From: Puffinus mauretanicus | Lineage: Eukaryota; Chordata; Aves; Procellariiformes; Procellariidae | Direction of reading: 5' to 3' | DNA: 64,000 nucleotides | Assembly (NCBI GenBank): GCA_023333565.1 | Contig: JAJKFH010002041.1 | Location: forward strand, 1-64,000 | In this document: one piece after another, positions 2,782-63,173 of the stretch | Layout: every line of letters starts with the position of its first letter | Numbering within the stretch: the first letter of the stretch is position 1 | Position numbers and translations under genes: made by a program | Notes under the pieces: model-generated | Seen by the model: the letters and a program-made list of their open reading frames with translations, nothing else | Told to the model about the DNA's origin: nothing | Databases searched by the model: none

Positions 2782-2859
2782 GCTGAGAATCATACAGAAG
2801 CTGCTATAGACTTTGCAGGAGAAGCAGATGAAGCAGCAGTTTGAACATCCTCTCAAGCT

Positions 2860-11436: not shown

Positions 11437-12235
11437 TTAATAGGTGTAATTCCTTAGAATAATTTCCTTTCCAGTGCTTTCTTCAGAAAAAACCTTCACA
11501 TCTTTGTTTCTCAGGCTAGGGGTGATGGGGTTTAACATGAGGATGAAAAGACAGTACGACATGGACACTAATTTGATCTGGTCCGGTGAAGAGGAGTCAG
11601 AAGGAATGGCATACATTTCGAATGTTGTGCCAAAATACAGTGTTACTGCCATAGAGTGGGAAGCACAGGTAGAGAAGGCTTTCCTCCTGCCTGCCTGAGA
11701 AGTGATCCTCAGGATGGTGGAGATCATGTTGCAGTAGGACACCAGGATCACACAGCACAAAGTGATAATAAAGAAAGAGGAGAAGGAGAACAGCACAATC
11801 TTATTGACAAAAGTTTCACTGCAGGAGAGCTTTAGGAGTGGAAGGAGCTCAGAAAAGTAGTGATCAATCTCATTGGACCCAGGGAAGTTCAGCTGAAAGA
11901 TTAAACAACTGGTGTGTACTGCAATGTCTAAACTGCCTCAAAGGTTTAAACCAGAACCGGCAAGTAACACCCTCCAGGACATGATAGTCTGGTAGAGGAG
12001 AGGATTGCAGATGGCAGTGAAGCAGTCGTAAGACATTGTCGCAAGAAGAAAGTATTCAGTGGAAACAGAGAGTCCTCCAAAGAAAACAGAGAGTCCTCCA
12101 TTTGCCATTATAGCAAATGCCTTTGTGCTCTGAGCAGGACCTTGGGGGCAACACTGTTGGCATAACAGACATCTATGAAGGCAATATTACCAACAAAGAA
12201 GTACATAGGTATAGTGTAGAGTGCACATAAGTGTA
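11437..12235 (-). pseudogene. Olfactory receptor pseudogene lacking TM1
   Basis: From 12235 downward on the minus strand: [21 protein letters not shown] (TM2), then [25 protein letters not shown] (TM3), GSNEIDHYFSELLPLLKLSC (extracellular loop 2), and the long frame at 11437-11796 with ILVSYCNMISTILRI (TM5), AGRRKAFSTCASHSMAVTLYFGT (TM6) and a TM7 remnant in which the usual NPxIY is LNPITPSLRN. TM1 and the N-terminus are missing. A direct duplication near 12066-12105 and at least one stop near 11950 break the frame. DRY is DC, as in the other two receptors here. Confidence 0.88.
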
Positions 12236-24881: not shown

Positions 24882-25553
24882 ATATGTCCAGTTTGTAGAA
24901 GGGTTCATGAGCTCTGCCAACAAGTACTTCCTTGCTGGGCACCAGGTGAACTTCTACTTGTTCACAGACAATCCTGAGCAGATCTCTCACCTTCATATGG
25001 CCCCTGAGAATCGCCTCTTTGTCGTCCCTGTCCAGAATCATGGTGGCAGGATATCTCCATGAGCCATATGGATATCATCAGCAGATATATCCGCAGCCAA
25101 TTCCAGTATGAGATCGACTATCTCTACTCCATAGACATTGATGTCCAGCTATTTGAACACATTGGTGTGGAGATCATTGATACACTGGCGGGGACCATCA
25201 GCTCCTGGCAGTACACTACACGTCATGAGAGCAAATCATATGAGACACACATTGAGTCACAAGCTGCTATCCCTACGGGAGAAGGGAACTTCTATTATAC
25301 AGCAAGCTTCTATGGGGGAAGTGTGGCCGAGGTCTACAAACTGACCAGAGCCTGTTTTAAAGGGGTCATGGAGGACAGAAAAAATGGCATTGAAGCTAGG
25401 TGGCATGAGGAGAGCCACCTCAACAAGTATCTCCTGTATCACAGGCCCACGCGCCTGCTCTTCCCAGACTACTACTGGGATGAAGAGCTAAGCCGGCCCT
25501 GCATCATCCAGGTGAAGAGGGTGCGCTCTGTGCGCAAGGATGGCAAGAAGTAA
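24882..25553 (+). pseudogene. GT6 catalytic exon (exon 7 equivalent), one-base frameshift
   Basis: Acceptor TTTCCCTTCCTTGTCTCTCAG, then YVQFVEGFMSSANKYFLAGH, VNFYLFTDNP and RLFVVPVQNH. About base 25043 one nucleotide is missing before the codons for WQDIS, so the upstream frame ends at a TGA at 25060. The rest is open in the second frame: MSHMDIISRYI; the metal-binding D-x-D as SIDID; GVEIIDTLAGTI; GEGNFYYTASFYGGS (the three residues after FYY are TAS, where ABO has LGG or MGA and GGTA1 HAA); NGIEARWHEESHLNKYLL with the conserved catalytic Glu; LFPDYYWDEEL; stop at 25551. The length matches the family apart from a slightly short C-terminus. The long intact second part suggests recent loss, or a base error in the assembly. 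Confidence 0.93.
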
Positions 25554-42122: not shown

Positions 42123-42566
42123 CTATTCTCTTCCCTTTCTCAATAACTTCTTTACTGTGTTGCCCCATATGATGACATCATCAATGTATTGCAGGTGTTC
42201 TGGAGCCTCACCCTGTTCCAGTGCAGTCTGGATCAGTCCTTGGCAAATGGTAGGGCTGTGTTTCCACCCCTGGGGCAGTCGGTTCCAGGTGTACTGGACG
42301 CCCCTCCAGGTGAAAGCAAACTGTGGCCTGCACTCTGCTGCCAAAGGGATGGAGAAGAACACATTAGCAATATCAATTGTGGCGTACCACTTGGCTGCCT
42401 TTGATTCCAGTTCGTATTGAAGTTCTAGCATGTCCAGCACGGCAGCACTCAGTGGCGGCGTGACTTCATTCAGGCCACAATAGTCTACTGTTAGTCTCCA
42501 CTCTCCATTAGACTTTTGCACTGGCCATATGGGACTGTTAAAGGGTGAGCAAGTCTTGCTGATCAC
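42123..42566 (-). pseudogene. ERVL reverse transcriptase fingers and palm
   Basis: 147 open codons: SPFNSPIWPVQKSNGEWRLT (fingers), ATIDIANVFFSIPL (first catalytic Asp), LPQGWKHSPTICQ and QYIDDVIIWG (YIDD, bases 42177-42188). The catalytic box is intact, but the frame stops at both ends and the neighbouring parts are shifted, so no complete enzyme can be made from this locus. Confidence 0.9.
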
Positions 42567-42589
42567 TCCTTGGCTCTCCAGTCGACGAA

Positions 42590-43020
42590 TCAGGGATTAT
42601 GGATGGGAATCAGGGAATCCCAGTTGGTGCAATGTTGGCGCTGGTGCACTGTTGTGGTAGCGATCAGCACCTGTTGTTCTTTGACCCTCAGCAACCCCAC
42701 AACAGAAGGGTCCTCCGAGAGACCGGGCAAGGTAGACAGCTGTTTAATTTCCTCCATCTCCAAGGCAGCTATACCAAAAGCCCACCAGTACCCTTTTGGG
42801 TCCTTGAAATACCCTCTCCTGAGGTAGTCTATGCCAAGGAGGCACGGAGCCTCTGGGCCAGTCACAATGGGGTGTTTCTGCCACTCATTCCCGGTTAGGC
42901 TCACTTCAGCCTCCAACACAGTTAACTCTTGGGATCCCCCTGTCACTCCAGAAATACAGATGGATTCTGCCCCTTTATAGCTTGATGGCACCAGGGTACA
43001 CTGCACCGGTGTCTACGAGA
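42590..43020 (-). pseudogene. ERVL aspartic protease, frameshifted after DTG
   Basis: The long frame (42590-43006) has the LLGIDYL flap-to-core motif and a C-terminal tail. The active-site DTG triplet lies at about 43005-43013 but in another frame; a small deletion directly after it breaks the enzyme. Confidence 0.78.
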
Positions 43021-45996: not shown

Positions 45997-47319
45997 TTAT
46001 GAGAGTGCAGACTTCACTGCTCGGCTAGGCACCCATATTGGTCCCTTATCTGTGGAAACACACATGTATCCCCTCCCATTAAATATTACCGAAACTGGGC
46101 CCAGCCACATGCCAGTGATTGGGTCTCGATACATTACTTTTAATTTCGGAAGCGTTGTATGAGAGTTAAACTTAAGGTTTTGGTGATGTATTATAATCGA
46201 TGGCTCTTCTCTGTCTCCCATCAGACACAAATAATTTAGAGTAAATAGGACTTTATGCAGTCTCATCTGCGGGTCCTTTTCTCCCTCCTTTTGCTTTGCT
46301 AGATAGTCCTTCAATACCTGATGCGTACGTTCTACTAGGCTTTGCCCTGTCGGTGAGTTTGGGATGCCTGTAATATGCTTGACCCCCCATCTCATCAGAA
46401 AAGTTCTCAACTTCTGACTAGTGTAAGCAGGGCCATTGTCTGTTTTCAGTTGTTCTGGCACACCCAACACTGCGAAGCAAGCAAGGAGGTGCTTACACAC
46501 ATGATGAGCTTTCTCACCCGATAAAGCCGTGGCCCATATTACTTTAGAGAAGGTATCTATGGTGACATGTACATATTTGAGCTGCCCAAATTCGGCAATA
46601 TGAGTTACATCAGTCTGCCAGAGCTCTAAAGCCTTGAGACCTTTTGGATTAACGCCCAGCCCTATTCCAGGTCCATGATTTCCACACTTGGGACAGGCTT
46701 GTATGATAGAGCGAGCTTCATTTTCTGATAACCCATATTGCCTTCTTAAACCCTTTGAGTTTTGATGAAATATTTCGTGACCCTGCCTAGCTTGCAAAAA
46801 TTTATCTACAGGTGGTACATGACACGCTGGACTGACAAGATTGTCCGCTATCTGATTACCTTGTCCTAAACCCAACTCCCATTGATGGCTACGGATATGA
46901 ATAACACAACACGGAGCCGCTCGCTGAGAGATGGTCGATCTTAATTGAATAAACAGTTTCCCTAGCTGAGGATTATTTGTTTCCCTAATCAGTGCGTCTT
47001 GAATTCTTGGTATAAGCCCAGCTACATATAGAGAATCAGTCACCACATTCAAAGGATGATTAGGCCAGTTCCCTAATGCCCATACCACCGCCACTAATTC
47101 TAAAGTCTGTAAGGTATCTCCAGCTTGCCCTTGCAAAATCTTTTTGCACCATTGATCTGTTTCCCACCATACGCATGCAGCTTGTCTAGAACGTTTTCCC
47201 GCATCTGTATATACCGTCAACCCCTCGAGAATGGGGCTACCGACCACTTTAGGTTTTTCTAGCCACTGATTTCGTTTTAGAATTTGCCACAATTTCCCTT
47301 GAGGTTGCTGAGAGTGCAC
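45997..47319 (-). CDS. Class II ERV RNase H-integrase open frame
   Basis: 440 codons without a stop. The RNase H part (about residues 30-170) keeps all four acidic positions in VYTDAG, LELVAVVWAL, VTDSLYVAG and GNQIADN. The integrase follows with H-x3-H and C-x2-C (HEIFHQ, CPKC), then WQTD, KTDNGPAYTSQ and SLVERTHQ with exactly 35 residues between the last Asp and Glu. A C-terminal DNA-binding part ends at GPIWVPSRAV. The first codon given is not ATG; the frame is simply the remainder of a pol polyprotein whose RT part is deleted. There is no obvious promoter to express it alone, since the upstream LTR is only 69 bp. Compared with the ERVL pol next to it, it is strikingly intact, so it is younger. 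Confidence 0.85.
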   Translation of the reverse strand: MHSQQPQGKLWQILKRNQWLEKPKVVGSPILEGLTVYTDAGKRSRQAACVWWETDQWCKKILQGQAGDTLQTLELVAVVWALGNWPNHPLNVVTDSLYVAGLIPRIQDALIRETNNPQLGKLFIQLRSTISQRAAPCCVIHIRSHQWELGLGQGNQIADNLVSPACHVPPVDKFLQARQGHEIFHQNSKGLRRQYGLSENEARSIIQACPKCGNHGPGIGLGVNPKGLKALELWQTDVTHIAEFGQLKYVHVTIDTFSKVIWATALSGEKAHHVCKHLLACFAVLGVPEQLKTDNGPAYTSQKLRTFLMRWGVKHITGIPNSPTGQSLVERTHQVLKDYLAKQKEGEKDPQMRLHKVLFTLNYLCLMGDREEPSIIIHHQNLKFNSHTTLPKLKVMYRDPITGMWLGPVSVIFNGRGYMCVSTDKGPIWVPSRAVKSALS

Positions 47320-47351
47320 CTTTCCACTAAATCCTAACAGAGATTCTTGAA

Positions 47352-47420
47352 CGGCTTGCCTTATACTATAACAAACAAATCTTCAGTGCTCGGAATGTTC
47401 ACAGAAAAAATCCTTCCACA
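47352..47420 (-). mobile_element. Class II ERV 5' LTR remnant
   Basis: 69 bp equal to 45324-45392 except two bases. In sense it starts TGTGGAAGG at 47420 and is then interrupted at the CGGCTTGCC word, where pol sequence begins. Confidence 0.88.
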
Positions 47421-49069
47421 GTGCCAAGCTCCACGTGGAGGGTGGCCGCTTCGGAGCTTGGCCCTGGTGCGGGTGAGGGCTAGGTTGAGGTTAGGTGGGA
47501 GAACAGACAGAGAGCCCCGGTGTTGGTGAGGCTGAGAATGGGCTGCGAAGTGATCGTGAGGGCCAGCATCAACCCTGATTCCTGGCTATCTCCGTGCCAA
47601 GCCCTATGTGGAGAACGGCCGCTGCGGAGCTTTGCCCTGATGAGGGGCAGGGATATGTCGAGGATAAGTGGGAGAACAGAGACAGAGCCCCGGTGTTGGT
47701 GAGGCTGAGAATGGGCTGCGAAGTGATCGTGAGGGCCAGCTTCAACCCTGATTCCTGGCTATCTCAGTGCCAATCCCTATGTGGAGAATGGCCGCTACGG
47801 AGCTTTGCCCTGATGAGGGGAAGGGATATGTCGAAGCTAAGTGGGAGAACAGAGACAGAGCCTCGGATTTGGTGGGGCTACCAAGGAAAGGTGAGGGTCA
47901 GCATCAACCTTGATTTCTGGCTACCTTAGTGCCAAGCTCCGCGTGGAGGGTGGCCGCTTCGGAGCATGGCCCTGGTGAGGGTGAGGGCTAGGTTGAGGTT
48001 AGGTGGGAGAACAGACAGAGAGCCCCGGTGTTGGTGAGGCTGAGAATGGGCTGCGAAGTGATCGTGAGGGCCAGCATCAACCCTGATTCGTGGCTACCTA
48101 AGTGCCTAAGCCCCACATGAGAGTGGTCGCTTCGGAGCTTGGCTCCGATGAGGTTAAGGCATAGGTCGCTGTTAGGTGCGAGCAGAGACACAGAGCCCCG
48201 GTATTGGTGGGGCTGAGAGGGGGCTGCCAAGAGACCGTGAGGACCAGCATCAACCTTGATCTGATTACCTCAGTGCCAAGCTCCACGTGGAGGGTGGCCG
48301 CTTTGGAGCTTGGCCCTGGTGAGGGTCAGGGCTAGGTTGACGTTAGGTGGGAGAACAGACAGAGAGCCCCGGTGTTGGTGGGGCTGCCAAGGAAGGTGAC
48401 GGCCAGCATCATCCGCGAGTCCTGGCTTTTCAGTGCCAAGCCCTATGTGGAGCGTGGCCGCTTCGGTGCTTTGTCCTTATGAGGGTAAGGGATATGTCGA
48501 AGATAAGTGGGAGAACATAGACAGAGCCCCAGTGTTGGTGAGGCTGGGAATGGGCTACGAAGTGATCGTGAGGGCCAGCATCAACCTTGATTCCTGGCTC
48601 TCTTAGTGCCAAGCCCTATGTGGAGCGTGGCCGCTTCGGAGCTTTGCCCTGATGAGGGGAAGGGCTAGGTTGAGGTTAGGAGGGAGAACAGACACAGAGC
48701 CCCGGTGTTGGTGGGGCTGAGAGGGGAGTGCAAACAGAAGGTGAGGGCCAGCGTCAGCCTTGACTCGTGGCTATATCGGTGCCAAGCCCTATGTGGAGAA
48801 TGGCCGCTGCGGAGCTTTGCCCTGATGAGGGTAAGTGATTTTTCGAGGATAAGTGGGAGAACAGAGACAGAACCTCGGATTTGGTGGGGCTACCAAGGAA
48901 AGCTGAGGGCCAGCATCAACCCTGATTCGTGGCTACCTAAGTGCCTAAGCCCCACATGAGAAGGTGAGTGCAGCTTAGAGACTTAATGTATAAAATGTAT
49001 ATGTATGAAGAAGTAATAGAGAAGAAGAGAAGTAAATGAGAATATATGAGAAGAAGAAATGAGAAAAAT

Positions 49070-49111
<42 letters not shown>

Positions 49112-49334
49112 GCAACTAGAGGGACTGTTAGGTGCGAGGAGAGACACAGTGCCACGGTGTTGTTGGGGCTGACAAGTGGCTGCCAAGATATCGTGATGAC
49201 CAGCATCATCCTTGAGTCCTGGCTATTTCTGTGCCTGAGCCGGATGAGGTGGGTGGCTGTTTCGGAGCTTGACTCTGATGAGGATAAGGGATAGTTTGAG
49301 GTTCTGCGTAGATAACGAGACCCTTCTGCATTAG
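47421..49334 (+). repeat. 172-bp satellite array A1
   Basis: Tandem units of about 172 bp (spacings of the AGCCCCGG word: 172, 174, 162, 173). Key words are TGCCAAGCTCCACGTGGAGG, GGCCGCTTCGGAGCTT, GATGAGGGTAAGGGATA, GAGAGCCCCGGTGTTGGT and GAGGGCCAGCATCAACC. Because 172 is not a multiple of three the frames rotate, producing several chance ORFs. It starts directly at the class II LTR. Confidence 0.92.
48966..49125. repeat. AT-rich interruption with (AT)n in array A1
   Basis: Purine-rich GAAGAAG words followed by about 12 AT units at 49078-49100, inserted in a satellite unit. Confidence 0.8.
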
Positions 49335-49770
49335 ATAACGCCACCCACCACATGGACTCCAAACGAGGAGTAGCCCCTTCCTGGTCCCACCACCCCTCTC
49401 CCTTATTCTCAAACCTAAATATCAACCTTTGCCTTACCATCTCTCGAGCCCATTTCCTAAACGGCTTCCCACCAGAGGGCGCTCCAACACAGGAAGAACC
49501 AGCATTGAAAGCTGTTTCTTGCTCTTGCCTTTCGTGGCAGCCCTTTCAGAGGGAGCTGTTCTCGCTCTACCACCCAACCAGGAACCTTACCAGAGCCCAA
49601 CTGCAAAGCAGTCGGGCTCCCTTAAACTAACAGGCAGGACTGAAAGATGTTGGTGGCTCTCACCTTCCCTTGATAGACCCTTCTCAGCTGCCCAACAGCC
49701 AGCCAGCTCCAGCACCCCAAATGTGCCATATCCACCACACCTAGCACTCCTTGCTACACATTGGTGGTGC
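49335..49770 (+). repeat. Junction block T1 between A and B
   Basis: Begins by reading the A unit in inverted orientation (ACGCCACCCACCACATGG), then a unique-looking segment with the CTCF-like site, then ACTGAAAGATGTTGGTGGCT and CTTCTCAGCTGCCCAACAG, leading into B. Homologous to 58305-58745, 60905-61230 and, inverted, 55925-56275. Confidence 0.85.
49469..49482 (+). promoter_or_regulatory. CTCF core consensus match (T1)
   Basis: CCACCAGAGGGCGC matches the published vertebrate core CCASYAGRKGGCRS at all 14 positions. Binding is inferred, not shown. Confidence 0.55.
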
Positions 49771-50014
49771 CTGCTGCTAGGCATGTTCCGTTGCTGAGTC
49801 GTGGGGGTGGTGGGCACTGCGGGGACTGGCTTCTTGTCATGTCCTGGTGCTGGGGATGCTGGGTGCTGTGTGCTGGGCTCCGGGGCTGCTGGGCATGTCC
49901 AGGTGCTGTGCATTGGCGGTGGGTGTGCTGCGTTGTGTGCGTGTGTGGGAATCAGTGCTGGGCCATGGGAGTGCTGGGCCCTGGCAGTGCTGGGTAGAGG
50001 GTATGATGGGTGCA

Positions 50015-50573
50015 TGTGTAGGTTTAACCCCAGCCAGCAAATAAACCCCACGCAGCCGCTGGCTCACCTCCCCTCCAACCCCGTGGGATTGGGGAGAGAA
50101 TCGAGAAGGCACAAGTAGGAAAGCTCCCGGGTTGAGATAAAAACAGTTTAATGATTGAAATAAAACGAATTAGAACAGTAATAATAACAATGAGAACAAC
50201 AATAGATGATACAAAGCAGGCAATGCACAATGCAACTGCTCACCGCTGCCGACCGTGTGTCTCGAGCGGCAGGGGAGAGCCCCCTCCCCTGCCCCCTCCC
50301 ATTTTTTATACTGAGCATGATGTCACATGCTATAGAATACCCCATTGGCCAGCTAGGTCAACTACCCCGGCTGTGCTCCCCACCCCACCCCCCCCCGAGC
50401 TTCCTGTGGGAGGCCGAAAAGAGAGAACAAAAGTCTCCCGGTGCAAGCACCGCCCAGCAACAGCCAAAGCATTAAGGGGCCATCAAGGCCCCTCTCACAC
50501 CAAACCCAAAAGCCAGCCCACCCCCCAAGCTACTGGGAAGAAAGTTAACTCTGTCCCAGCCGGAAGCAGGACA
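50015..50573 (-). mobile_element. Solo ERVL-type LTR in minisatellite B1
   Basis: Same family as 10681-11249, minus orientation; ends TGTGTAGGTTTAACC and GCAGGACA on the plus strand. Flanked by the 5-bp target duplication GTGCA (50010-50014 and 50574-50578). TATA-like TTTTTTATA on the plus strand near 50305. Confidence 0.9.
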
Positions 50574-51781
50574 GTGCAGTGCGCTGGAGTTCTGAGTGCT
50601 GGGTCCTAGGGGTACTGTGTATGTTTGGGTGGTGGGCATATCCGCGTGCGGGTAGTGGGCAGTTGGGGTGCTGGGGGGTGGTGGTACTGGATGCTGGGCA
50701 TTGGGTATGCTGGTTTCTGGGCACTGGGGGTGGTGGGTGCTGAGCGCAGCGTGTGCTGGGTGCTATGTGCAGATCACTGGGGATGGTGGGGGCTGGTTTG
50801 CTGCTTTCTGGTATGTTGGGCGCTGGGCATGTTTGGGTGCTGGGCATGTCTGGGTGCTGGGCACGGGCAGTGGGGCTGCTGGGTATGTCCGGTGGTGGGT
50901 ATGGGGCGGTGGGAGTGCTGGGTGCTAGGTACTGGGGGTGCTGGGCCCTGGCATTGCTTGGTACTATGCATAACTGAGTGCAGGGTATGTCTTGGTGCTG
51001 GCCATATCCGGTGCTAGGCGTGTGCTCTGGGTTTGCTGGGTGCTGTGCTCTGGGGGTGTTGGATTCCTGGCATGTGCATGTGCTGGGCCCTGGTTGTGCT
51101 GGGTATGTGTGGGTGCTGGGTGTTGGGCAGTATGGGTGCTGCGTGGTGGGCGCTGGGCATGTCCCGGTGCTGGGCACTGGAGGTCCTGGGTGATGGGGAG
51201 CAGGGAAGCTGCCTTCTAGGAATGTCTCAGTGCTGGGCATATCCGGGTGCTTGGTACTGTGCACTGGTGGTGGTGGTACTGGGTGCTGGGCACGTCCCGG
51301 TGCTAAGCAATGGCAGTGCTGGGTGCTTGGCGCGGGGGGTGATGGTGTTTGGGTGTGCTGGGTGGTGGGGGTGCTGGGCATGTGCGGGTGTTGGTTGCTG
51401 GGCCCTGGGTGTACTGGGTGCTGGACACTGGGGTGGTTGGTTTCTGTGCACTGGGGTTGCTGGGTATGTCCGGGTGCTGGGCAATGGCTGGCTGCTGGGT
51501 TCTGGGCCCTGAGGTTGCTGGGTGCTGGGCACCGGCCTTGCTGGGTGCTGGCTGGTGTGGGTGCTGGGGGCTAAGTGCTGGTTGCTGGGCCCTGGGAGTG
51601 CTGGGTATTATGCATAAGCAGGTGCAGGGTATCTCTTGCTGCTGGATGCTGGGTGCTGGGGCTGCTGGCTGCTGGGCATGTCCAGGGGCTGTGTGTTGGC
51701 GGTGGGTGTGCTGGGTTGTGCGCATGTCCGGGAATGAGTGCTGGGCCATGGGGGTGCTGGGTGGAGGGTATGATGGGTGCA

Positions 51782-51796
51782 TGTCGTGGTTTAACC
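51782..51796 (-). mobile_element. 15-bp ERVL LTR remnant
   Basis: TGTCGTGGTTTAACC, the exact family LTR end, after the same flank (TATGATGGGTGCA) that precedes the LTR at 50015. The rest of the LTR is gone and normal B repeat resumes. Confidence 0.75.
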
Positions 51797-52207
51797 TGGC
51801 ATGTGCGTGTGCTGTGTGCTGGGCCCTGGTTGTGCTGGGTATGTGTGGGTGCTGGGTGTTGGGCAGTGTGGGTGCTGTGTGGTGGGGCCTGGGTGCTGGG
51901 CGGTCGGGATGCTGGGCGGTGGGCAGCAGAGAAGCTGCCTGCCGGGCATGTCTGGGTGCTGGGCATGTGTGGGTGCTGGGCAGTGGGGGTGGTGGGCGGT
52001 GGTGGTGCTGTGTGCTGGGCATGTTGGGCTGCTGGGTTTTGGGCAGTGGGCGTGCTGGGTGTGTGCGTGTGTTGGTTTCTGTGCACTGGGGTTGCTGGGT
52101 GCTGGGTATGTCTGGGTGGCGGGCATGGCTGGGTGCTGGGCCCCGAGGTTGCTGCGTGCTGGGCACGGGGCTTGCTGGTGCTGCTGGTGCGAGTGCTGGG
52201 GGCCAGG

Positions 52208-52735
52208 TGTTGTCCGAAAAGCGGATTCCTGCCCGGCGTGGAAGGAACCAATTCCACACGCTCAGGAGAGAGATTGTTTTATTCAGGCCTGGGTGCTCGG
52301 TGGACTTGCCACAAATGAAGCACACCGGGTCTAATCACCTTTCTGTTTGTATCCATGCTTCTCATACATATTTTCAGTTTCTCTTTTACATATTCCTTAA
52401 ATTTCCGAGAACCGATTATAATATTACATCATCCTAGACATGCGCACTAAAACCTTTAGGGTCTCCTTGAGGGTCTCGGGTGGTCTCTGGTGGTCGGCGG
52501 GGTAGTGAACTCTTCGTGAACCTGTTCCTTTCTTTCCTTGTAAGGTCGAGGTTTGTCTCCGAGCCACGTCTGGACCACGTTAGTTTACGGTTCTCGTTTC
52601 CAAGGTTACTCTTCACTAGAGTCTAACAATGCTTCCAGGAGACCCGATTTCGACTACAATTCTACACACCTGCAAACACTACACCTGCTAGTTACCTAAC
52701 TTCTAAGCCACAAGTCTTCATTGTGTAGAATTACA
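52208..52735 (-). mobile_element. Solo LTR of an unassigned ERV
   Basis: About 528 bp of non-B sequence with TG...CA ends. In the minus sense it starts TGTAATTCTACAC and ends TTTTCGGACAACA, with AATAAA near 52273-52278 about 65 bp before the end, as expected for an R-U5 region. No convincing target duplication was found, so the exact ends are approximate. It may be class I. Confidence 0.7.
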
Positions 52736-53098
52736 GAAGCGAGCCGAGGTACTGGGGCTACTGGTTGCTGGGGCCTGGGAGTGCTGGGTACCATGCATAA
52801 TTGGGTGCAGGGTATGTCTTGCTGGTGGATGCTGGGCACTGGGGCTGCTGGGTGCTGGGCATGTCTCAATGCTGTGTGTTGGCGGTGGGTGTGCTGGGTT
52901 GTGCGCATGTCCGGGAATGAGTGCTGGGCCCTGGGAGTGCTGGGTGCGGGGAGCTAGGGGTGCTGGCTGTGGGCATTTGCAGGTACTGGTCATGACCAGG
53001 TGCTGGTTGTTGGGTCTTGTGGGTGCTGGGCGTGTGCAGGTGCTGGGCATGTCCGGATGCTGTGTGCTCGGCACTTGGGGTTCTGGGTAGTGGGCAGT

Positions 53099-55924
53099 GA
53101 GGGTGCACACCAAACACCCACCATCCAGCATGCCCACACGTCTCACACCCAGCACCCACAGTGGCAGGAACCAGCATACCCAACACACCCACTTCCAGCA
53201 CACCCACTGCCCAGGACCTGCATACGCTGCATTGAACCCAGCACCCCCAGCACCCAATAACCGATAGCCCCAGCGCCCAGCACGCCAGGGTCCAGCAACC
53301 AACACACGCACAGGCCCAGCACCCAGCACCCCCACCGCCCAAAACCCAGCACCCTGATGTGCCCAGCACACAGCAGCCCCAGGGACCACCACCCCCAGCG
53401 CCAAGCACCCAGCACCACCATTGCTCAGCACCCAGACATGCCCAGCACCTAGCACCACCACCCCCAGTGCCCAACACCCAGCACCCACACATACCCAGCA
53501 CAACCAGGGCCCAGCACACAGCACACGCACGTGCCAGGAATCCAGCACCCTCACAGCACAGCACCCAGCAACCCCAGCACAGCCACCCAGCACCGGATAT
53601 GCCCAGCACCCAGCACTGCATTTGCCCAGCACCCGGTACCTCCAGCACCAAGCATCCAGCACCAAGACACACCCTGCACTCAGTTATGCATAGTACCCAG
53701 CAATGCCAGGGCCCAGCACCCCCAGTACCTAGCACCCAGCACTCCCACTGCCCAGCACCCCGACATGCCCAGCACACAGCACCCGCACCACCCCACACTG
53801 CCAGTTCCCAGTACCCAGCACCCAGACATGCCCAGCACCCAGACATGCCCAGCGCCCAACACACCAGAACACAGCAAACCAGCCCCCAAGAACCCCAGTG
53901 ATCAGCACATAGCACCTGGACATGCCAAGCACCTGCAGTGCTCAGCACCCCAAACACCTACCATACAGCACCCCCACAGGTCTCACACCCAGCACGCCCA
54001 GTGCCCAGAAACCAGCATACCCAACACTCAGCATCCAGAACCCCCACCCCTCAGTGCCCAGCATGCTGCACATAGACATGGCCAGCACCCGGACATGACT
54101 AGCAGGCAGCTTCCCTGCTCCCCATCGCCCAGAACCTCCCGTGCCCATCACCCAGCACCCAGACATGCCCAGAGTCCACCACACAGCACCCACACTGCCC
54201 AACACCCACACATACCCAGCACAACCAGGGCAGAGCACACAGCACACGCATATGCCAAGAAACAAGCACCCCCAGAGCACAGAACCCAGCAACTCCAGAG
54301 CACAGACGCAGCACTGGATATGCCCAGCACCCAGTACCTCCAGCACCAAGAGATACCCTGCACTCAGTTATGCATAGTACCCAGCAATAGCAGGGCCCAG
54401 CACCCCCAGTAACTAGCCCCCAGCAACCCCACTGCCCAACACCCGCCACCTGGACATGCCCAGCATACAGCACCCGCACCCCCAGTGCCCAGTACTCAGC
54501 ACCCACACATGCCCAGAACCCAAGCATGCGCAGGACCCAACGCACCAGAACGCACAAAACCAGCAACCAACATCCCCAGTGATCAGGACATAGAACCCGG
54601 ACAAGCCCAGCACCCAGCATCCCCAGTGCCCTGCACCCAGTACACCAAACACCCACCACCATACAGGTCTCGCAGCCAGCACCCCCCAGTGCCCAGAAAC
54701 CAGCATACCCAACACCCCCACAGCCCAAGAACCCCTTTACCCAGCATCCAGACATGCCCAGCACTCGAACATACACAGCACCCAGCACCCTCAGGGCCCA
54801 GCACTAACTCCCGGACAGGCGCACAACCCAGCACCCCAACCGCCAACAAACAGCACCTGGACATGCCCACCACTCAGCAGCCCCAGTGCCCAGCCCCCAG
54901 CACCGCAACAGCCAGCATCCCCAGCGTCCAGCACCCTCACTGCCCACCACCCAGAACCCCAAGTGCCGAGCACACAGCATCCGCACATGCCCAGCACCTG
55001 GTCATGTCCAGCAACTGAAATGCCCACAGCCAGCACCTCTAGCTGCCAGCAGCCAGCACCCCCAGTGCCCAGCATCAGTCATGCCAAGGACGAGGACATG
55101 CCCAGCACTCAACACCCCAGTGGCCAACACCCAATACCCCCGGCACCCAGCAGCAAGACACACCCTGCACCCGCTTATGCATAGTACCCAGCACTCCCAG
55201 CCCCCAGCGGTAGCGCCGCCCAGCACCCAGCAACCCCAGTGCACAGCACCCACTAACCCCAGTGCCCAGCATCCCCAGCGCACAGCAGCCGGCATATGGA
55301 CATGCCCAGCACACGGACATACCCACTAGCCAGCACCCCTAGTGCCCAGCACCCAAAACTCCCTCCATCCATCACCCAGACATGCCCAGTGCTCAGCGCC
55401 CCCAACAGCCAGGATCAGGAAATGCCCAGCAACAAGCACTCCCATGCCTACCACCGCCAGTGCCCAATAACCAGCACACAGACAATGCCCACCAGCCAGC
55501 ATCCAGAACCCAGCCCCAAGCACTCAGTCCACAGGCATGCCCAGCACCCTGATATGCATAGTCCCCAGCACCCCCAGTGCCCACGACCCATCACTTGGAC
55601 ATGCTCAGCACTCAGAGATGTCCAGCACCCTACACGCCCAGTGCCTAGAACCCAGTACCCCCAGTGACCAGCACCCAGCGCAGCCAGTGCCCAGCACTGC
55701 CTGTAGCCAGCATCCACCACTCAGACACGATCATCACCTGCCCATTCCCAGCACCAAATCCTCCCAGTGCCCAGCACAGGGACATGTCGAGCACGCAGAT
55801 ATGCCCAACACCCAGCAACCGCAGCACCCAGACCTGTCCAGAACCCACTCCACTCAGGGCCTAGCACACAGTATCCCCACAACCCAGCACCGACCCAGGC
55901 CCAGCACCAAGCACTGCCAACGAT
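53099..55924 (-). repeat. Minisatellite B1, inverted arm (C-rich on plus strand)
   Basis: The same B units as reverse complement (CCCAGCACCCAGACATGCCC). The marker word appears inverted at about 53672-53695, 54356-54380 and 55160-55190. Segment 54928-55050 is an inverted copy of about 52960-53105. Confidence 0.92.
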
Positions 55925-56275
55925 CCCAAGGGGTGCTAGGTGTGCTGGATGTTGCGCATTTGCGGTGCTGGAGATGGCTGGGGTCTGGGCAGCTGAGAAG
56001 GGGCTGTAAAGGGAAGGTGAGCGCCGCAAACATATTTCAGTCCTGGCTAAATGTGTGTGGGAGCTCGACGGGGCGCTTGTCTGCTTTGCAGTTGGGCTGC
56101 GGCAAGGTTGATGGTTGAGTGCTACAGCAAGTGCATAGCCCCGGTGTTGGTGGGGACCACAAAGGGCTGCCAGGGCAGGCGAGTGCAACGAACAGCAGTC
56201 ATCTTGGTTCCCTCTGTGTTGGAGCGCCATCTAGTGGGTAGACGTTTCAGAGCCTGGCTCTGATGAAGGTAAGAT
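55925..56275 (-). repeat. Junction block T2 (inverted)
   Basis: Reverse complement of the T4 block at 60905-61230: TGCTGGAGATGGCTGGG, GAGAAGGGGCTGTAAAGGG, AGCTCGACGGGGCGC and the CTCF-like site, then into A2. Confidence 0.88.
56224..56237 (-). promoter_or_regulatory. CTCF core consensus match (T2)
   Basis: CCACTAGATGGCGC on the minus strand, a 14/14 match to CCASYAGRKGGCRS; oriented towards the one at 49469. Binding is inferred. Confidence 0.55.
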
Positions 56276-58304
56276 GCAGGTTGATGTTTAGGTGGAAGAG
56301 ACCAAAGAGAAGGGAGCAGGGGTTGGTGGGGCTGAGGAGGGGCTGCCAAGAGACCGTGAGGGCCAGCATCAGCCTTGATTCCTGGCTACTTCAGTGCCAA
56401 GCTCCACGTGGAGGGTTGCTGCTTCGGAGCTTGGCCCTCGTGAGGGTCAGGGCTAGGTTGACGTTAGGTGGGAGAACAGACAGAGAGCCCCGGTGTTGGT
56501 GAGGCTGCCAAGGAAGGTGAAGGCCAGCATCATCCGCGAGTCCTGGCTATTCAGTGCCAAGCCCTATGTGGAGCGTGGCCGCTTCGGTGCTTTGCCCTGA
56601 TGAGGGGAAGGGATATGTCGAGGCTAAGTGGGAGAACAGAGACAGAGCCTTGGATTTGGTGGGGCTACCAAGGAAAGGTGAGGGTCAGCATCAGCCTTGA
56701 TTTCTGGCTACCTTAGTGCCAAGCTCCACGTGGAGGGTGGCCGCTTCGGAGCTTGGCCCTGGTGAGGGTCAGGGCTAGATTGAGGTTAGGTGGGAGAACA
56801 GACAGAGAGCCCCGGTGTTGGTGAGGCCGAGAATGGGCTGCGAAGTGATCGTGAGGGCCAGCATCAACCCTGATTCGTGGCTACCTAAGTGCCTAAGCCC
56901 CACATGAAGAGTGGTCGCTTCGGAGCTTGGCTTCGATGAGGTTAAGGGATAGGTCGCTGTTAGGTGCGAGCAGAGACACAGAGCCCCGGTATTGGTGGGA
57001 CTGAGAGGGGGCTGCCAAGGGAAAGTGAGGGCCAGCATCAACCTTGGTCCTGATTACCTTAGTGCCAAGCTCCACGTGGAGGGTGGCCGCTGCGGAGCTT
57101 TGCCCTGATGAGGGTAAGGGATATGTCGAGGATAAGTGGGAGAACAGAGACAGAGCCTCGGATTTGGTGGGGCTACCAAGGAAAGGTGAGGGCCAGCATC
57201 AGCCTTGATCCTGATTACTTCAGTGCCAAGCTCCACGTGGAGGGTGGCCGCTTCGGAGCTTGGCCCTGGTGAGGGTCAGGGCTAGGTTGAGGTTAGGTGG
57301 GAGAACAGACACAGAGCCCCGGTGTTGGCGGGGTTGCCAAGAGAATGTGAGGGCCAGAATCAACTTCCATCCTGGCTACTCTGTTCCTGAACCCCATGAG
57401 GTGGATGGCTGCTTACGAGCTTCGCTTTGATGAGGGTAAGGGATAGATTGCTCTTAGGTGCGAGTACAGACACAGAGCCCCGGTGTGGGTGGGGCTGCCA
57501 AGACAATGTGAAGGCCACCGTCAACCTTGTGTCCTGGCTACTTTTGTGCCCGAGCCCCATGTGGAGGGTGGCCTTTTTGGAGCTTGGCTCTGATGAGGGT
57601 AAGGGACAGGTTGACGTTAGGTACGAGTACAGACACGGAGCCCCGGTGTTGGTGGGGCTGAGAAAGGACTGCCAAGGGAAGGTGAGGTCCAGCATCAACC
57701 TTCTATTCTGGCTATACTCTCTTGGAGCCTGATGTGGTGGGTGGCCGCTTCGGAGCTTGGCTTTTGAGGAGTGTAAGAGATGATAGGTTGATGTTAGGTG
57801 CGAGAACAAACAGAGAGCCCCGGTGTTGGAGGGGCTGCCAAACGAATGTGAGGGCCAGCATTAACCTTGAGTCCTGGCTACTGTGTCCCTGAGCCCCATG
57901 AGATGGGTGGCGTCTTTGGAGCTTGGTCTTGATGAGCATAATGGCTACGTTGATATTAGGTGGGAGAACAGACACAGAGCCTTTGTGTTGGTGGGGCTGG
58001 CGAGGGAAGGTGAGAGCCAGCATCAACTTCAGTCCTGGCTACTGTGTCCCCGGTCCCCATGTGGTGGGTGGCCGCTTCGGAGCTCGGCTCTGAGGAGGGT
58101 AAGGGCTACGTTGCCGTTAGGTGGGAGAACATATAGAGACCCCCGGTGTTGGTGGGGCTGAGGAGGGGCTGCCAAAGGAAGGTGAGGGCCAGCATCAACC
58201 TTGAGACATGGCTGCTTCTGTGCCTGAGCCCCATGAGGTGGGTGACCGCTTCGGAGCTTGGCTCTGATGAGTGTAAGGAATAGGTTGAGATTCTGCCTTA
58301 GATA
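56276..58304 (+). repeat. 172-bp satellite array A2
   Basis: The same unit as A1 in the same orientation, about 11-12 copies. Later units (57360-58290) are more diverged, with CCTGAGCCCCATGAGGTGGG-type variants. Confidence 0.92.
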
Positions 58305-58745
58305 ACGCCACCCACCACATGGGGCTCCAACAGAGAAGTAGCCCTTTCCCGGCCCCGACATCACCGGCCCCATCCCTTAATTCTCCCAACTAAGTATCAG
58401 CCTTACTTTCACCAGAGCCCATTTGCGTCGCGACTTCCCACTAGATGGCGCTCCAACACAGAAGGAACCAGGATTGGATGCTGTTTCTCAGTCTTGCCTT
58501 TCTTGGTAGCCCTTTTCCGGATGCTCTGCTCTCGCTCTACCACCCAACCATCAACCTTACACATCCAGCTGCCAAGTAGTCAATCACCCTTGCGGGCTCC
58601 CATGCACAAAATGGCAGGACAGAAAGATGTTGGCGGCTGTCACCTTCCCTTGATAGACCCGTCTCAGCTGCTCAGCACCCAGCCATCTCCAGCACCCCTA
58701 ATGTGCCATATCCACCACACCTAGCACCCCTTGCTACACATTGGT
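58305..58745 (+). repeat. Junction block T3
   Basis: Collinear homologue of T1, with TAGATAACGCCACCCACCAC, the CTCF-like site, ACAGAAAGATGTTGGCGGCT and ATGTGCCATATCCACCACAC. Confidence 0.88.
58438..58451 (+). promoter_or_regulatory. CTCF core consensus match (T3)
   Basis: CCACTAGATGGCGC, 14/14 match to CCASYAGRKGGCRS on the plus strand. Binding is inferred. Confidence 0.55.
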
Positions 58746-59517
58746 GGTGCCTGGTGCTGGGCATATTCTGTTGCTGAGTGGTGGGGGTGCTGGGTGGTGG
58801 GCACTGCGGGGGGCTGGCTTGTTGTCATGTCCAGGTGTTGGGTCCTGGGCAGTGGGGGTGCTGGTTGAGAGGCTCTGAGCATGGTGAGTTCTGGAGATGT
58901 GTGGGTGCCAGGCATCTTTGGCTGCTGGGCATTTCCAAGTGATAGGTCTTAGGCACCGGGACTGCTGGGCGCTAGCTGGTGTAGGTGCTGGGGTCTAGGC
59001 CCTGGGAGTGCTGTGTGCTGGGCCCTGGTTGTGCTGGGAATGTGTGGGATCTGGGTGTTGGTCAGTGTGCGGGCCCTGGGCATTGCTGTGTGCTGGGGGT
59101 GCTGGCTGTGGGCATTTCCAGTTGCTTGTCATGAATGGGAACGGTGTGCTGGCAGAGGTGGGCGGTGGATGTGCTGGGTGCTCGGCATGTCTGGGTGCTA
59201 GGCGGTAGCGGTGCTGGGTGCTTGGCACTGGGGGTGATGGTCTTTGGGTATGCTGCGTTGTGGGCATGTCCCTGTGCTGGGTACTGGGCATATCTGGTGC
59301 TGGGTGCGTGCACTGGGGGTTGCTGGATGCTGTGTTCTGGGGTGCTGGATTCTTGGCATGTGCGTGTGCTGTGTGCTGGGCCCTGGCTGAGCTGGGAATG
59401 TGTGGGTGCTGGGTGTTGGGCAGTATGCGTGTTGTGTGGTGGGCGCTGGGCATGTCCGGGTGGTGGTCAGCAGGGAAGCTGCCTGCTGGTCATGTCTGGG
59501 TGCTTGGCAATGGCTCT
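58746..59517 (+). repeat. Minisatellite B2
   Basis: Short B array, plus orientation, switching abruptly to inverted A units at about 59518. Open frames here (59135-59578 and others) are repeat artefacts. Confidence 0.9.
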
Positions 59518-60904
59518 CAGACACAGACCTAACGTCAGACAGGTCCTAACGTCAACCTATCCCTTACCCTCAGCATAGCCAAGCTCCAAAGAGGCCACCC
59601 TCCACATGGGGCTCGGGCACAGAAGTAGCCAGGACTCAAGGTTGATGATGGCCCTCACGTTCTCTTGGCAGCCCCACCCACACCTGGGCTCTGTGTCTGT
59701 AGTCACGCCTAACAGCAATCTATCCCTTACCCTCATCAAAGCGAAGCTCGTAAGCAGCCATCCACCTCATGGGGTTCAGGAACAGAGTAGCCAGGACAGA
59801 AGTTGATTCTGGCCCTCGCATTCTCTTGGCAACCCCTTCTCAGCCCCGCCAACACCGGGGCTCTGTGTCTGCCCTCTCGCCTAAACTCAGCCTAGCCCTT
59901 ACGCTCATGAGAGCCAAGCTCCGAAGCGGCCAAGCACAGAAGCAGCCATGTCTCAAGGTTGACGCTGGCCCTCACTTTCCCTTGGCAGCCCCTTCTCAGC
60001 CCCAACAATACCAGGGCTCTGTGTCTGCCCTCTCGCCTAAACTCAGCCTAGCCCTTACGCTCATGAGAGCCAAGCTCCGAAGCGGCCAAGCACGGAAGCA
60101 GCCATGTCTCAAGGTTGACGCTGGCCCTCACTTTCCCTTGGCAGCCCCTTCTTAGCCCCAACAATACCGGGCCTTTGCGTTTGTTATCCCTCCTAACATC
60201 AGCCTATCCCTTACCCTCCTCAAAGCCAAGCTCCGAAGCAGCCAATCAACTCATGGTAGCTCAGGCACAGAAGTAGCCAGGACTCAAGGTTGATGTTTGC
60301 CCTCACCTTCCATTGGCAACCCCTCCACCACCGGGCTCGGTGTCTGTATTCGCACCTAATGTCAACCTATCCCTTACCCTCATGAAAGCCAAGCTCCGAA
60401 GCGGTCACCCACCTCATGGGGCTCAGGCGCAGAAGTAGCCAGGACTGAAGTTGATTCTGGCCCTCACCTTCGCTTGGCAACCCCTTCTCAGCCCCACCAA
60501 CACCGGGGCTCTCGCACCTAACGTCAACCTGTCCCTTACCCTCATCAGAGCCAAGCTCCAAAACCGCCACCCTCCACATGGGGCTCAGGCACAGAAGTTG
60601 CCAGGACTGAAGGCCTATACTGGCCCTCACCTTCCATTGGCAGCCCCTCCTCAGTCCCAACAACACCAGGGCTCTGTGTTTGTTCTGCCTCCTAACGTCA
60701 ACCTATCCCTTACCTTCATCAGAGCCTAGCCCAAAAGCGGCCACCACCACATGGGGCTCTGGCACAGAAGTAGCCAGGATAGAAGACTGATGCTGGCCCT
60801 CACCTTCCCTTGGCAGCCCCTTCTCAGCATCACCAACACCGGGCCCTTCTCTTTGGTCTCCCACCTAAACATCAACCTACATCTTACCTCGATCAGAGCC
60901 AAGC
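59518..60904 (-). repeat. 172-bp satellite array A3 (inverted)
   Basis: A units as reverse complement: CTCCACATGGGGCTC, AGAAGTAGCCAGGACT, CAACACCGGGGCTCTG and AACCTATCCCTTACCCTCA. A pair of adjacent units at about 59880-60160 is almost identical, a local recent duplication. Confidence 0.92.
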
Positions 60905-61230
60905 TTTGAAACGTCTACCCACTAGATGGCGCTCCAACACCGAAGGAACCAACATTGACTGTTCGTTGCACTTGCCTTCCCCGGCAGCCCTTTGAGGTCC
61001 CCACCACCACGGGGCCTATGCGCTTGCTGTAGCACTCAACAGTCAACCTTGCCGGAGCCCAACTGGAAAGCAGTCGTGCGTCCCGTCGAGCTCCCACGCA
61101 CATTTAGCCGGGACTGAAATATGTTCGCCGCTCTCACCTTCCCTTTACAGCCCCTTCTCAGCTGCCCAGCACCCAGCCATCTCCAGCACCGCAAATGCAC
61201 AACATCCAGCACACCTAGCGCCCCTTGGTA
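60905..61230 (+). repeat. Junction block T4
   Basis: Contains the CTCF-like site, CTGTAGCACTCAACAGTCAA, GCTCCCACGCACATTTAGCC and CTTTACAGCCCCTTCTCAGC, then B3. Its last part is included in the 289-bp duplication. Confidence 0.88.
60919..60932 (+). promoter_or_regulatory. CTCF core consensus match (T4)
   Basis: CCACTAGATGGCGC, 14/14 match to CCASYAGRKGGCRS on the plus strand. Binding is inferred. Confidence 0.55.
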
Positions 61231-61405
61231 TCATTGGCAGTGCTTGGTGCTGGGCATGTGTCGGTGCTGGGCCATGGGGGTACTGTGTGCTAGGCCCTGA
61301 GTGTGGTGGGTTCTGGACATGGCTGGGTGTTGGGCGTATCTGGGTGCACGACATGTCCCTGTGCTGGGCACTGGGAGGTCTTGGTGCTGGGAACGGCCAG
61401 GTGAT
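61117..61405 (+). repeat. 289-bp direct repeat, left copy
   Basis: Runs from AAATATGTTCGCC to GGCCAGGTGAT and is identical, base for base by reading, to 62885-63173. It covers the end of T4 and the start of B3. Confidence 0.92.
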
Positions 61406-62884
61406 AGAATCATAGAATCATAGAATCAGTAAGGTTGGAAAAGACCTCTAAGATCATCGAGTCCAACCATCAGTCCAACACACCATGCCCCCTACACCAT
61501 GTCCCTAAGGGCCTCATCTACACGTCTTTTAAATACCTCCAGGGATGGTGACTCTATCACTTCCCTGGGCAGCCTGTTCCAAGGCCTGACCACTCTTTCA
61601 GTAAAAAAATTTCTTCTAATGTCCAGTCCAAACCTCCCCGGCGCAACTTGAGGCCATTTCCTCTTGTCCTATCGCTAGTTACTTGGGAGAAGAGACCAAC
61701 CCCCACCTCGCTACAACCTCCTTTCAGGTAGTTGTAGAGCGCGATGAGGTCTCCCCTCAACCTCCTCTTCTCCAGACTAAACAACCCCAGTTCCCTCAGC
61801 CGCTCCCCATCAGACTTGTGCTCCAGGCCCTTCACCAGCTTCGTTGCCCTCCTCTGGACACGCTCCAGCACCTCCATGTCCTTCTTGTAGTGAGGGGCCC
61901 AAAACTGAACACAGTATTCGAGGTGCGGCCTCACCAGTGCCGAGTACAGGGGCACGATCACCTCCCTGCTCCTGCTGGCCACACTATTCCTAATACAGGC
62001 CAGGATGCCATTGGCCTTCTTGGCCACCTGGGCACACTGCCGGCTCATGTTCAGCCGGCTGTCAACCAGCACCCCCAGGTCCTTTTCCTCTGGGCAGCTT
62101 TCCAGCCACTCTTCCCCAAGCCTGTAGCGTTGCCTGGGGTTGTTGTGGCCCAAGTGCAGGACCCGGCACTTGGCCTTGTGGAACCTCATACAGTTGGCTT
62201 CGCCCATCGATCCAGCCTGTCCAGGTCCCTCTGCAGAGCCTTCCTACCCTCCAGCAGATCAACACTCCTGCCCAGCTTGGTGTCATCTGCAAACTTACTG
62301 AGGGAGCACTCGATCCCCTCGTCCAGATCGTTGATAAAGATATTGAACAACACCGGCCCCAGTACTGAGCCCTGGGGAACACCGCTCGTGACCGGCCGCC
62401 AACTGGATTTAACTCCATTGACCACAACTCTCTGGGCTCGGCTGTCCAGCCAGTTTTTTACCCAGCGAAGAGTGTACCTGTCTAGGCTGTGAGCCGCCAG
62501 CTTCTCTAGGAGAATGCTGTGGGAGACAGTGTCAAAGGCTTTACTGAAGTCCAGGTAGACCACATCCACAGCCTTTCCCTCATCCACTAAGCGGGTCACC
62601 TGGTCACAGAAGGAGATCAGGTTGGTCAAGCAGGACCTGCCTTCCATGAACCCGTGCTGGCTGGGCCTGATCCCCTGGTTGTCCCGGACATGGCTCGTGA
62701 GCGCCCTCAAAACAAACCGCTCCATGATCTTCCCCGGCACCGAGGTCAGGCTGACCGGCCTGTAGTTCCCCGGATCCTCCTTCCGGCCCTTCTTATAGAT
62801 GGGCGTCACATTGGCGAGCCTCCAGTCGTCCGGGACCTCCCCAATTAACCAGGACTGCTGGTAAATAATGGAGAGTGGCTTGGC
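61406..62884 (-). mobile_element. CR1 LINE, young, 5'-truncated, RT domain present
   Basis: About 1.48 kb. In the minus sense it starts at the [19 protein letters not shown] block of RT and has [46 protein letters not shown] and FADDTKLG (the catalytic FADD) in one 264-codon frame. A one-base shift at about 62200 moves to a second frame with [30 protein letters not shown] and [17 protein letters not shown]; a further shift lies near 61640. The 3' end is four near-octamer repeats (ATTCTATG) at 61406-61427. It lacks the endonuclease and ORF1. It is much less decayed than the other CR1 copies here, and it sits exactly between two 289-bp direct repeats. Confidence 0.93.
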
Positions 62885-63173
62885 AAATATGTTCGCCGCT
62901 CTCACCTTCCCTTTACAGCCCCTTCTCAGCTGCCCAGCACCCAGCCATCTCCAGCACCGCAAATGCACAACATCCAGCACACCTAGCGCCCCTTGGTATC
63001 ATTGGCAGTGCTTGGTGCTGGGCATGTGTCGGTGCTGGGCCATGGGGGTACTGTGTGCTAGGCCCTGAGTGTGGTGGGTTCTGGACATGGCTGGGTGTTG
63101 GGCGTATCTGGGTGCACGACATGTCCCTGTGCTGGGCACTGGGAGGTCTTGGTGCTGGGAACGGCCAGGTGAT
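62885..63173 (+). repeat. 289-bp direct repeat, right copy
   Basis: Perfect copy of 61117-61405, abutting the 5' end of the CR1. Confidence 0.92.

What the first reader, a model, noticed from the sequence alone, without database searches (positions are those of the whole stretch)
49469..60932. Every A-B junction of the satellite carries an exact CTCF core match, with a convergent pair around the palindrome
Four T blocks, four 14/14 matches to CCASYAGRKGGCRS (49469 +, 56224 -, 58438 +, 60919 +). The repeats around them are diverged, yet the motif fits in all four, including one variant (CCACCAGAGGGCGC) that differs at two positions permitted by the consensus. The first two sites point towards each other across the inverted B arrays, the arrangement that anchors chromatin loops in vertebrates. 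This would make the satellite a tandem array of insulator or loop-anchor units rather than passive repeat. The motif match is seen directly; binding and function are inference.
Basis: partly seen in the sequence, partly recalled or inferred. Interest (0 to 1): 0.75.

Follow-up and report, generated by a model that had tools for sequence, protein, structure and literature searches.

The report
CTCF-capped satellite arrays in a bird
A satellite DNA element present in hundreds of places in what is probably a bird genome carries, at the edges of its core array, a well-kept match to the binding site of the chromatin-loop protein CTCF that points outward into G-rich repeats, so it may be a built-in chromosome-folding unit rather than passive filler.

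Summary
The four CTCF core matches are real and are the window's four best sites by weight matrix (matrix recalled). They are not four independent junctions. Each 'T block' is two divergent edge monomers of the A-array family, and all four descend from one cap. One A/B boundary (about 59,530) has neither cap nor motif.

The window's own 1.21-Gb genome holds 444 exact motif-plus-flank copies, reversed control 0. The recurrent plan is [B-][cap-][A array][cap+][B+]: two old cap classes, both motif-bearing, pointing into G-rich B (72 of 74 caps, 0 opposite). Of caps found without using the motif, 68 of 83 (64 of 79 outside this contig) and 85 of 100 listed keep 14/14. The only common core variants are ones the consensus permits; neutral decay predicts 12-20% intact. 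But 14 of 249 cap windows are as intact, and parsimony changes are not significantly fewer (p 0.20). Binding is untested.

The convergent pair is a by-product; divergent pairs around A are the rule. Partly supported; a new variant of CTCF-bearing macrosatellites.

The parts
47413..48982 (-). A array 1 (10 monomer hits of the ~160-173-bp family, the last partial; strand given in cap orientation); its left end abuts retroviral-like sequence and no partner cap is seen
49126..49308 (-). last A1 monomer pieces before the orientation switch
49370..49800 (+). cap T1, S (switch) class: edge monomers a (49370-49521) and b (49530-49657)
49469..49482 (+). CTCF core match CCACCAGAGGGCGC, 20.5 bits
49800..53100 (+). 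B array 1 (17/23-bp TGCTGGGCA-type repeats, G-rich on the + strand), interrupted at about 50020-50600 and 52200-52745; in the B pieces 15 G4 patterns on +, 0 on -
53101..55880 (-). B array 2, inverted (G-rich on the - strand); 14 G4 patterns on -, 0 on +
55885..56359 (-). cap T2, C (colinear) class: monomers a (56186-56359) and b (56024-56176)
56224..56237 (-). CTCF core match CCACTAGATGGCGC, 19.0 bits
56362..58301 (-). A array 2 (12 monomer hits), enclosed by caps T2 (-) and T3 (+): the one complete element of the window
58307..58795 (+). cap T3, S class, with an inverted A piece 58307-58343 and monomers a (58338-58487) and b (58499-58636)
58438..58451 (+). CTCF core match CCACTAGATGGCGC, 19.2 bits
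58796..59530 (+). B array 3, joined directly to A array 3 at about 59,530 without cap or motif
59545..60797 (+). A array 3 (8 monomer hits, in cap orientation)
60800..61230 (+). cap T4, C class: monomers a (60800-60963) and b (60978-61125)
60919..60932 (+). CTCF core match CCACTAGATGGCGC, 19.0 bits
61231..64000 (+). B array 4, interrupted by a CR1-like insert at 61406-62884 and by a second copy of the cap's last stretch from 62885

Best explanation
This is a dispersed and locally tandem satellite element with the plan [B inverted][cap -][A array][cap +][B]. Each cap is a pair of divergent edge monomers of the A family and carries one high-scoring CTCF site that points outward into the G-rich B repeats. 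Shown: the architecture in the loci examined, 444 motif copies, the site's retention in both cap classes and the CTCF-like pattern of common variation. Inferred: CTCF binds the caps when they are unmethylated. Because CTCF stops cohesin arriving from the side the motif points to (established knowledge), the caps would shield each A array from loop extrusion coming out of B, and facing caps of neighbouring elements would bracket the B/B inverted block. The element would then be a repeated boundary unit: A arrays as insulated islands, B blocks as small loops. The site is kept because copies with working caps persist or are re-amplified.
For: Site quality. Genome-wide: 444 exact motif+flank copies, reversed control 0. 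Architecture; of 74 motif-independent caps with 400 bp or more downstream, 72 face B on the motif strand, 0 the reverse, 2 have no B (75, 0 and 3 of 78 with motif-found caps included); 21 of 24 adjacent cap pairs divergent, 20 of 22 without motif-found loci; 17 of 18 adjacent motif pairs closer than 2.6 kb divergent among the 100 of 444 places listed. Retention: 68 of 83 motif-independent caps intact, 36 of 42 C class and 32 of 41 S class; 85 of 100 listed flank-only C caps; matrix score 12 or more in 81 of 83. Neutral decay on the cap tree leaves 12%, 17% and 20% intact under three rate models; 82% or more was reached in 0, 2 and 1 of 400 runs each. Common core variants only at Y5, R8, K9, all permitted. 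The motif CpG is kept in 98% and 85% of the two classes, the best joint retention of 18 CpG columns. In the window the motif is in 4 of 41 A-family hits, all four a-monomers.
Against: Other cap segments are as conserved or more so: 14 of 249 windows. Parsimony changes at fixed positions are not significantly fewer (p 0.20; p 0.12 in the first 41 copies), and the whole core has more changes than average (37 against 30.3). In the four window copies 55 of 369 windows have as few changes. The scored caps were the best 40 of 624 and of 588 candidates, so old decayed caps are under-sampled. Amplification and gene conversion could preserve a site without function. Convergent spacings of 2.8-21 kb are short for loops. 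No binding data.
Confidence: 0.5

Rival explanations
1. Hitch-hiking: the motif arose once by two base changes in an edge monomer and is common only because caps were amplified recently and homogenised. It may bind CTCF now and then, but nothing maintains it.
For: Some A units of the window reach 12 of 14 at about the same place. The window's caps descend from one ancestor and the genomic caps fall in two clades. Tandem copies at a repeated 4,547-bp spacing exist in C31. 14 of 249 windows are as intact, and parsimony changes are not significantly fewer.
Against: Both old classes, 74-75% identical in the window, keep the site. Neutral decay predicts 12-20% intact against 82% seen, and the common variants are only the three permitted ones.
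Confidence: 0.3
2. The cap is mainly a CTCF-dependent promoter or start site that drives a G-rich RNA outward through B, as subtelomeric CTCF sites drive TERRA in humans. Loops are secondary.
For: The motif strand is the G-rich, G4-forming strand of B: 35 G4 patterns on the motif strand and 0 on the other in the window's B pieces; 336 against 41 within 1.2 kb of 74 caps. In human 17p-family subtelomeres the CTCF sites are oriented towards the telomere and their mutation lowers TERRA (PMC5727389, passages).
Against: No transcript data. The telomere-repeat search did not complete, so a subtelomeric position is untested. Orientation is inherited from one ancestral cap.
Confidence: 0.12
3. The conserved block belongs to another DNA-binding protein (for example a zinc-finger repressor or CTCFL) whose site overlaps GGCGCTCCAACAC, and the CTCF match is incidental.
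For: The low-change run extends past the core into TCCAACAC, in the four window copies and in the 41-copy set.
Against: Common variation at Y5, R8 and K9 follows the CTCF consensus, and the 19-column matrix scores 12 bits or more in 81 of 83 copies. DXZ4 also shows conserved sequence right beside its CTCF site (PMC3491370, passages).
Confidence: 0.08

Closest known systems
DXZ4/Dxz4 macrosatellite (mammalian X)
   Same: Tandem satellite with a CTCF site in the repeat unit; sequence that diverges fast around a retained CTCF motif (PMC3491370, abstract and passages).
   Different: [quoted passage not shown] Here there are two outward sites per element, mixed polarity, conservation not confined to the motif, and copies on many contigs.
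FIRRE and ICCE tandem CTCF repeats (mammalian X)
   Same: Tandem arrays of CTCF sites linked with long-range contacts (PMC6985041, passages).
   Different: X-linked loci; no evidence here on sex-chromosome linkage or contacts.
Human 17p-family subtelomeric CTCF/TERRA promoters
   Same: CTCF motif near and pointing towards a G-rich repeat tract; shared by duplicated blocks (PMC5727389, passages).
Foldback-type transposon origin of a satellite (Tetris, Drosophila virilis)
   Same: A foldback transposon that supplied the building blocks of a satellite (PMC4079207, title and start of abstract in a search listing); that foldback elements have long inverted ends with tandem repeats is recalled.
   Different: No target-site duplication or element end was examined here; no link to a transposon is shown.

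Membership tests
CTCF binding site | Match to the core consensus CCASYAGRKGGCRS | tested here: met
   Four 14/14 matches; 68 of 83 motif-independent caps genome-wide
CTCF binding site | High score with the full 19-column matrix | tested here: met
   19.0-20.5 bits, top four of the window (matrix recalled); 12 or more in 81 of 83 caps
CTCF binding site | Common variation limited to degenerate positions across copies | tested here: met
   Alleles in 5 or more of 83 caps: Y5, R8, K9 only; rarer variants break the consensus in 15 caps
CTCF binding site | Core more conserved than flanking sequence | tested here: inconclusive
   Departure rate p 0.031, parsimony p 0.20, 14 of 249 windows equal or better
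CTCF binding site | Occupancy in vivo; unmethylated core CpG | not testable with these tools
   No ChIP or methylation data
CTCF binding site | Second (M2) half of the 33/34-bp motif | tested here: not met
   No M2-like 9-mer (recalled consensus, up to 2 substitutions) within 60 bp upstream or 67 bp downstream of the four sites; the two-part motif occurs in only a quarter to a third of binding events (PMC3368268, passages)
DXZ4-type macrosatellite | CTCF site in each repeat unit | tested here: met
   Most caps of both classes bear the core
DXZ4-type macrosatellite | Sites share one polarity | tested here: not met
   Window + - + +; mixed and mostly alternating elsewhere
DXZ4-type macrosatellite | Conservation restricted to the CTCF motif | tested here: not met
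   Other cap windows equally conserved
DXZ4-type macrosatellite | Large homogeneous tandem array | tested here: inconclusive
   Diverged elements in the window; tandem copies at 4,547-bp spacing in C31; most contigs seen are too short to judge
Convergent CTCF loop anchor pair | Forward site on the left, reverse site on the right | tested here: met
   49469 + and 56224 -, but 21 of 24 adjacent cap pairs in the fetched loci are divergent
Convergent CTCF loop anchor pair | Loop seen in Hi-C with cohesin | not testable with these tools
   No contact data
Foldback transposon | Inverted terminal blocks with tandem repeats (recalled) | tested here: met
   Inverted caps and B arrays around A
Foldback transposon | Target-site duplication and defined ends at isolated copies | not tested
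   The two 10-kb stretches fetched were still satellite at both ends
TERRA-type promoter | Close to telomere repeats and transcribed | not tested
   The telomere-repeat search did not complete

The most novel reading that the evidence does not exclude
A bird satellite has evolved into a genome-wide set of pre-built chromatin boundary units, with several hundred caps. In each unit a repeat core is sealed at both edges by outward-facing CTCF sites that sit next to strand-biased G-quadruplex arrays. Selection on CTCF binding, not only array turnover, keeps the edges, so that folding, replication or transcription of the repeat blocks is set by their own DNA.
Probability: 0.3. Interest if true: 0.82.

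Novelty: new variant of a known kind. Interest (0 to 1): 0.6.

Why it matters
The CTCF-bearing satellites met in the papers seen here are X-linked mammalian macrosatellites. Here a satellite carries such sites at the edges of its core arrays, in opposite polarity, in hundreds of copies with natural variants. That is a ready-made series for testing how site orientation, spacing and decay affect boundaries inside repeats. It would also bear on an open question: whether satellite arrays carry their own signals for where heterochromatin or loop extrusion stops. It warns too that repeats can add hundreds of candidate CTCF sites that unique-mapping short reads would miss.

Tried and rejected
Rejected: four independent gains of the motif (tree). 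Rejected: T as a separate sequence family. Rejected: the convergent pair as special, since close pairs are nearly all divergent. Rejected: strict DXZ4 membership (polarity and conservation). Led nowhere: Rfam, no hit; exact motif and A patterns in viral contigs, none; literal repeat strings in papers, none; M2 half-site, none. Paper searches bearing on a bird satellite with CTCF sites showed no such report among the titles and abstract starts listed; the library holds open-licence papers only. Of the 12 stretches fetched to find S caps linked to C caps, 5 gave a full cap.

Limits of the counts: a first set of 83 caps and a first count of facing and pairs removed duplicates by sequence only, and the first set let in two caps of L040 that had been found by the motif. 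One search repeated everything with duplicates removed by genomic place (coordinates) and with loci found only by the motif (L001-L008, L040, L042, L043) left out: 87 caps in all, 83 kept, 79 outside the window's contig, 8 partial hits dropped. The results hardly moved; the report uses. The cap profile used as detector was built from the four motif-bearing window copies. Searches scored 40 of 624 and 40 of 588 candidates. Searches list 100 of 444 and 100 of 194 places. The simulation assumes an intact root, a midpoint root and a two-rate substitution model. Most fetched loci are about 3 kb, so distant pairs are under-seen.
Full report
What was checked. A second-order Markov model of the satellite predicts about 0.12 hits above 18.9 bits. 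That the source is a bird is inferred from a CR1-like element and the genome size; no call names the organism.

What the 'T block' is. A profile of the A monomer finds 41 hits in the window. Each T block holds a motif-bearing monomer 'a' and a motif-free monomer 'b'. At the homologous place, within 6 bases, the other hits score 4.6 bits or less and reach at most 12 of 14; one hit does not cover the place. T is thus the divergent edge of the A array, and I call it a cap. The a and b monomers give the same grouping, ((T1,T3),(T2,T4)), and 55733-57621 is an inverted copy of 61405-59545 at 79.7%. The four sites are one inherited site. The A3/B3 boundary near 59,530 lacks a cap, so the motif is at 4 of 5 A/B boundaries. 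In the b monomers and the A units, the two bases that complete the core are other letters, so a gain in the cap lineage is the simpler reading; this compares present-day copies only.

The genome. The window is 64 kb of a 68.1-kb contig in a 1.21-Gb assembly of 2370 contigs. The core plus TCCAACAC occurs 444 times (218 and 226 by strand), and the reversed pattern 0 times. Three 8-kb and two 10-kb stretches show the plan [B-][cap-][A][cap+][B+]. There are two cap classes: C caps continue the A array (T2, T4), and S caps follow an orientation switch (T1, T3). They form two deep clades. Of 74 motif-independent caps with 400 bp or more downstream, 72 face B on the motif strand, 0 the reverse and 2 no B; of 24 adjacent cap pairs seen in one locus, 21 are divergent, 2 convergent and 1 tandem (most loci are about 3 kb, so distant pairs are under-seen). 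Among the 100 listed places, adjacent pairs are 25 divergent, 18 convergent, 9 and 4 tandem, and 17 of the 18 closer than 2.6 kb are divergent. In the window, T2-A2-T3 is the only complete element; T1 and T4 belong to elements whose other cap is not seen.

Is the site kept? Copies were found without the motif: by the b-monomer flank of T4, by that of T3, or by lying near such a copy. Of 83 caps, counted once per genomic place, 68 keep 14/14: 36 of 42 C and 32 of 41 S; outside the window's contig 64 of 79. A flank-only pattern (ACGTCTAC, 14 free bases, TCCAACAC) has 194 matches, with 1 and 1 in the reversed control; of the 100 listed, 85 keep 14/14. Against neutrality: simulated decay on the cap tree leaves 12%, 17% and 20% intact under three rate models, and 82% or more was reached in 0, 2 and 1 of 400 runs each. 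Alleles present in 5 or more caps occur at Y5, R8 and K9 only, each the permitted alternative; 149 of 397 other cap columns have such an allele, so none at the eight fixed positions has probability about 0.023 if columns are independent. The motif CpG is kept in 98% and 85% of the classes, the best joint retention of 18 CpG columns. In the four window copies alone, simulated neutral retention has probability about 0.005.

Results that go the other way. Parsimony changes at fixed positions are 12 against 17.3 expected, p 0.20; the whole core has 37 against 30.3; and 14 of 249 windows are as intact under the same fixed/degenerate pattern. In the first 41 copies the fixed-position test gave p 0.12. 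In the four window copies, 55 of 369 windows have as few changes and 15 of 287 are as clean. Y5 is the most changing column of the cap (14 changes), which may reflect gene conversion, a mutation hot spot or an unresolved tree. Fifteen of the 83 caps have lost 14/14. Samples lean to the best-scoring copies.

G-rich partner. The window's B pieces hold 35 canonical G4 patterns, 35 on the motif strand and none on the other, against about 14 expected from composition and 1 in the 47.4 kb outside. Within 1.2 kb of 74 motif-independent caps there are 336 on the motif strand and 41 on the other. Papers link G4s with CTCF occupancy and looping (PMC11333042, passages).

How it most likely works. CTCF stops cohesin on the side its motif points to (established knowledge). 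Outward caps would therefore keep extrusion out of A, and facing caps of neighbours would bracket B/B blocks. This step is inference. Dxz4 sites share polarity, and inverting Dxz4 swaps the direction of its contacts (PMC6985041, passages), which is the precedent and also the difference. Duck TAD boundaries are enriched for predicted CTCF sites, with an excess of convergent pairs (PMC7787181, passages), so the avian machinery appears to be there.

Verdict. It is a new variant of a known kind.

Noticed in passing
61117-61405 and 62885-63173: A CR1-like insert (61406-62884, reverse-transcriptase hit) is flanked by an exact 289-bp direct duplication of satellite sequence. That is far longer than a usual target-site duplication; an assembly join of two haplotypes is the other possibility.
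   Followed up: partly
25008-25553 (+): Reading frame matching glycosyltransferase family 6 (PF03414, E 1.4e-62), possibly an exon of an ABO/GGTA1-type gene (the gene type is recalled).
   Followed up: no
1876-2940 (-) and 11437-11937 (-): Olfactory receptor sequences, one long frame and one partial, in the same contig as the satellite.
   Followed up: no
42123-42596 (-) and 45997-47382 (-): Retroviral-like reverse transcriptase and RNase H/integrase frames in separate pieces; the second ends about 30 bases before A array 1 begins at about 47,413.
   Followed up: no
50014-50573 and 10680-11249: The insert inside B array 1 is 84% identical to a stretch at 10.7 kb: a dispersed repeat of unknown kind.
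   Followed up: no
34390 (+) and 44987 (+): Two further CTCF matrix hits outside the satellite, 18.2 and 16.5 bits, each one mismatch from the core.
   Followed up: no
G000:C31:184387-189708: Whole elements repeat in tandem at a 4,547-bp spacing, with the same core haplotypes in both copies.
   Followed up: partly
49483-49490 and homologous places: The run TCCAACAC next to the core shows no change in the four window copies and in the 41-copy set: perhaps a second binding site.
   Followed up: no
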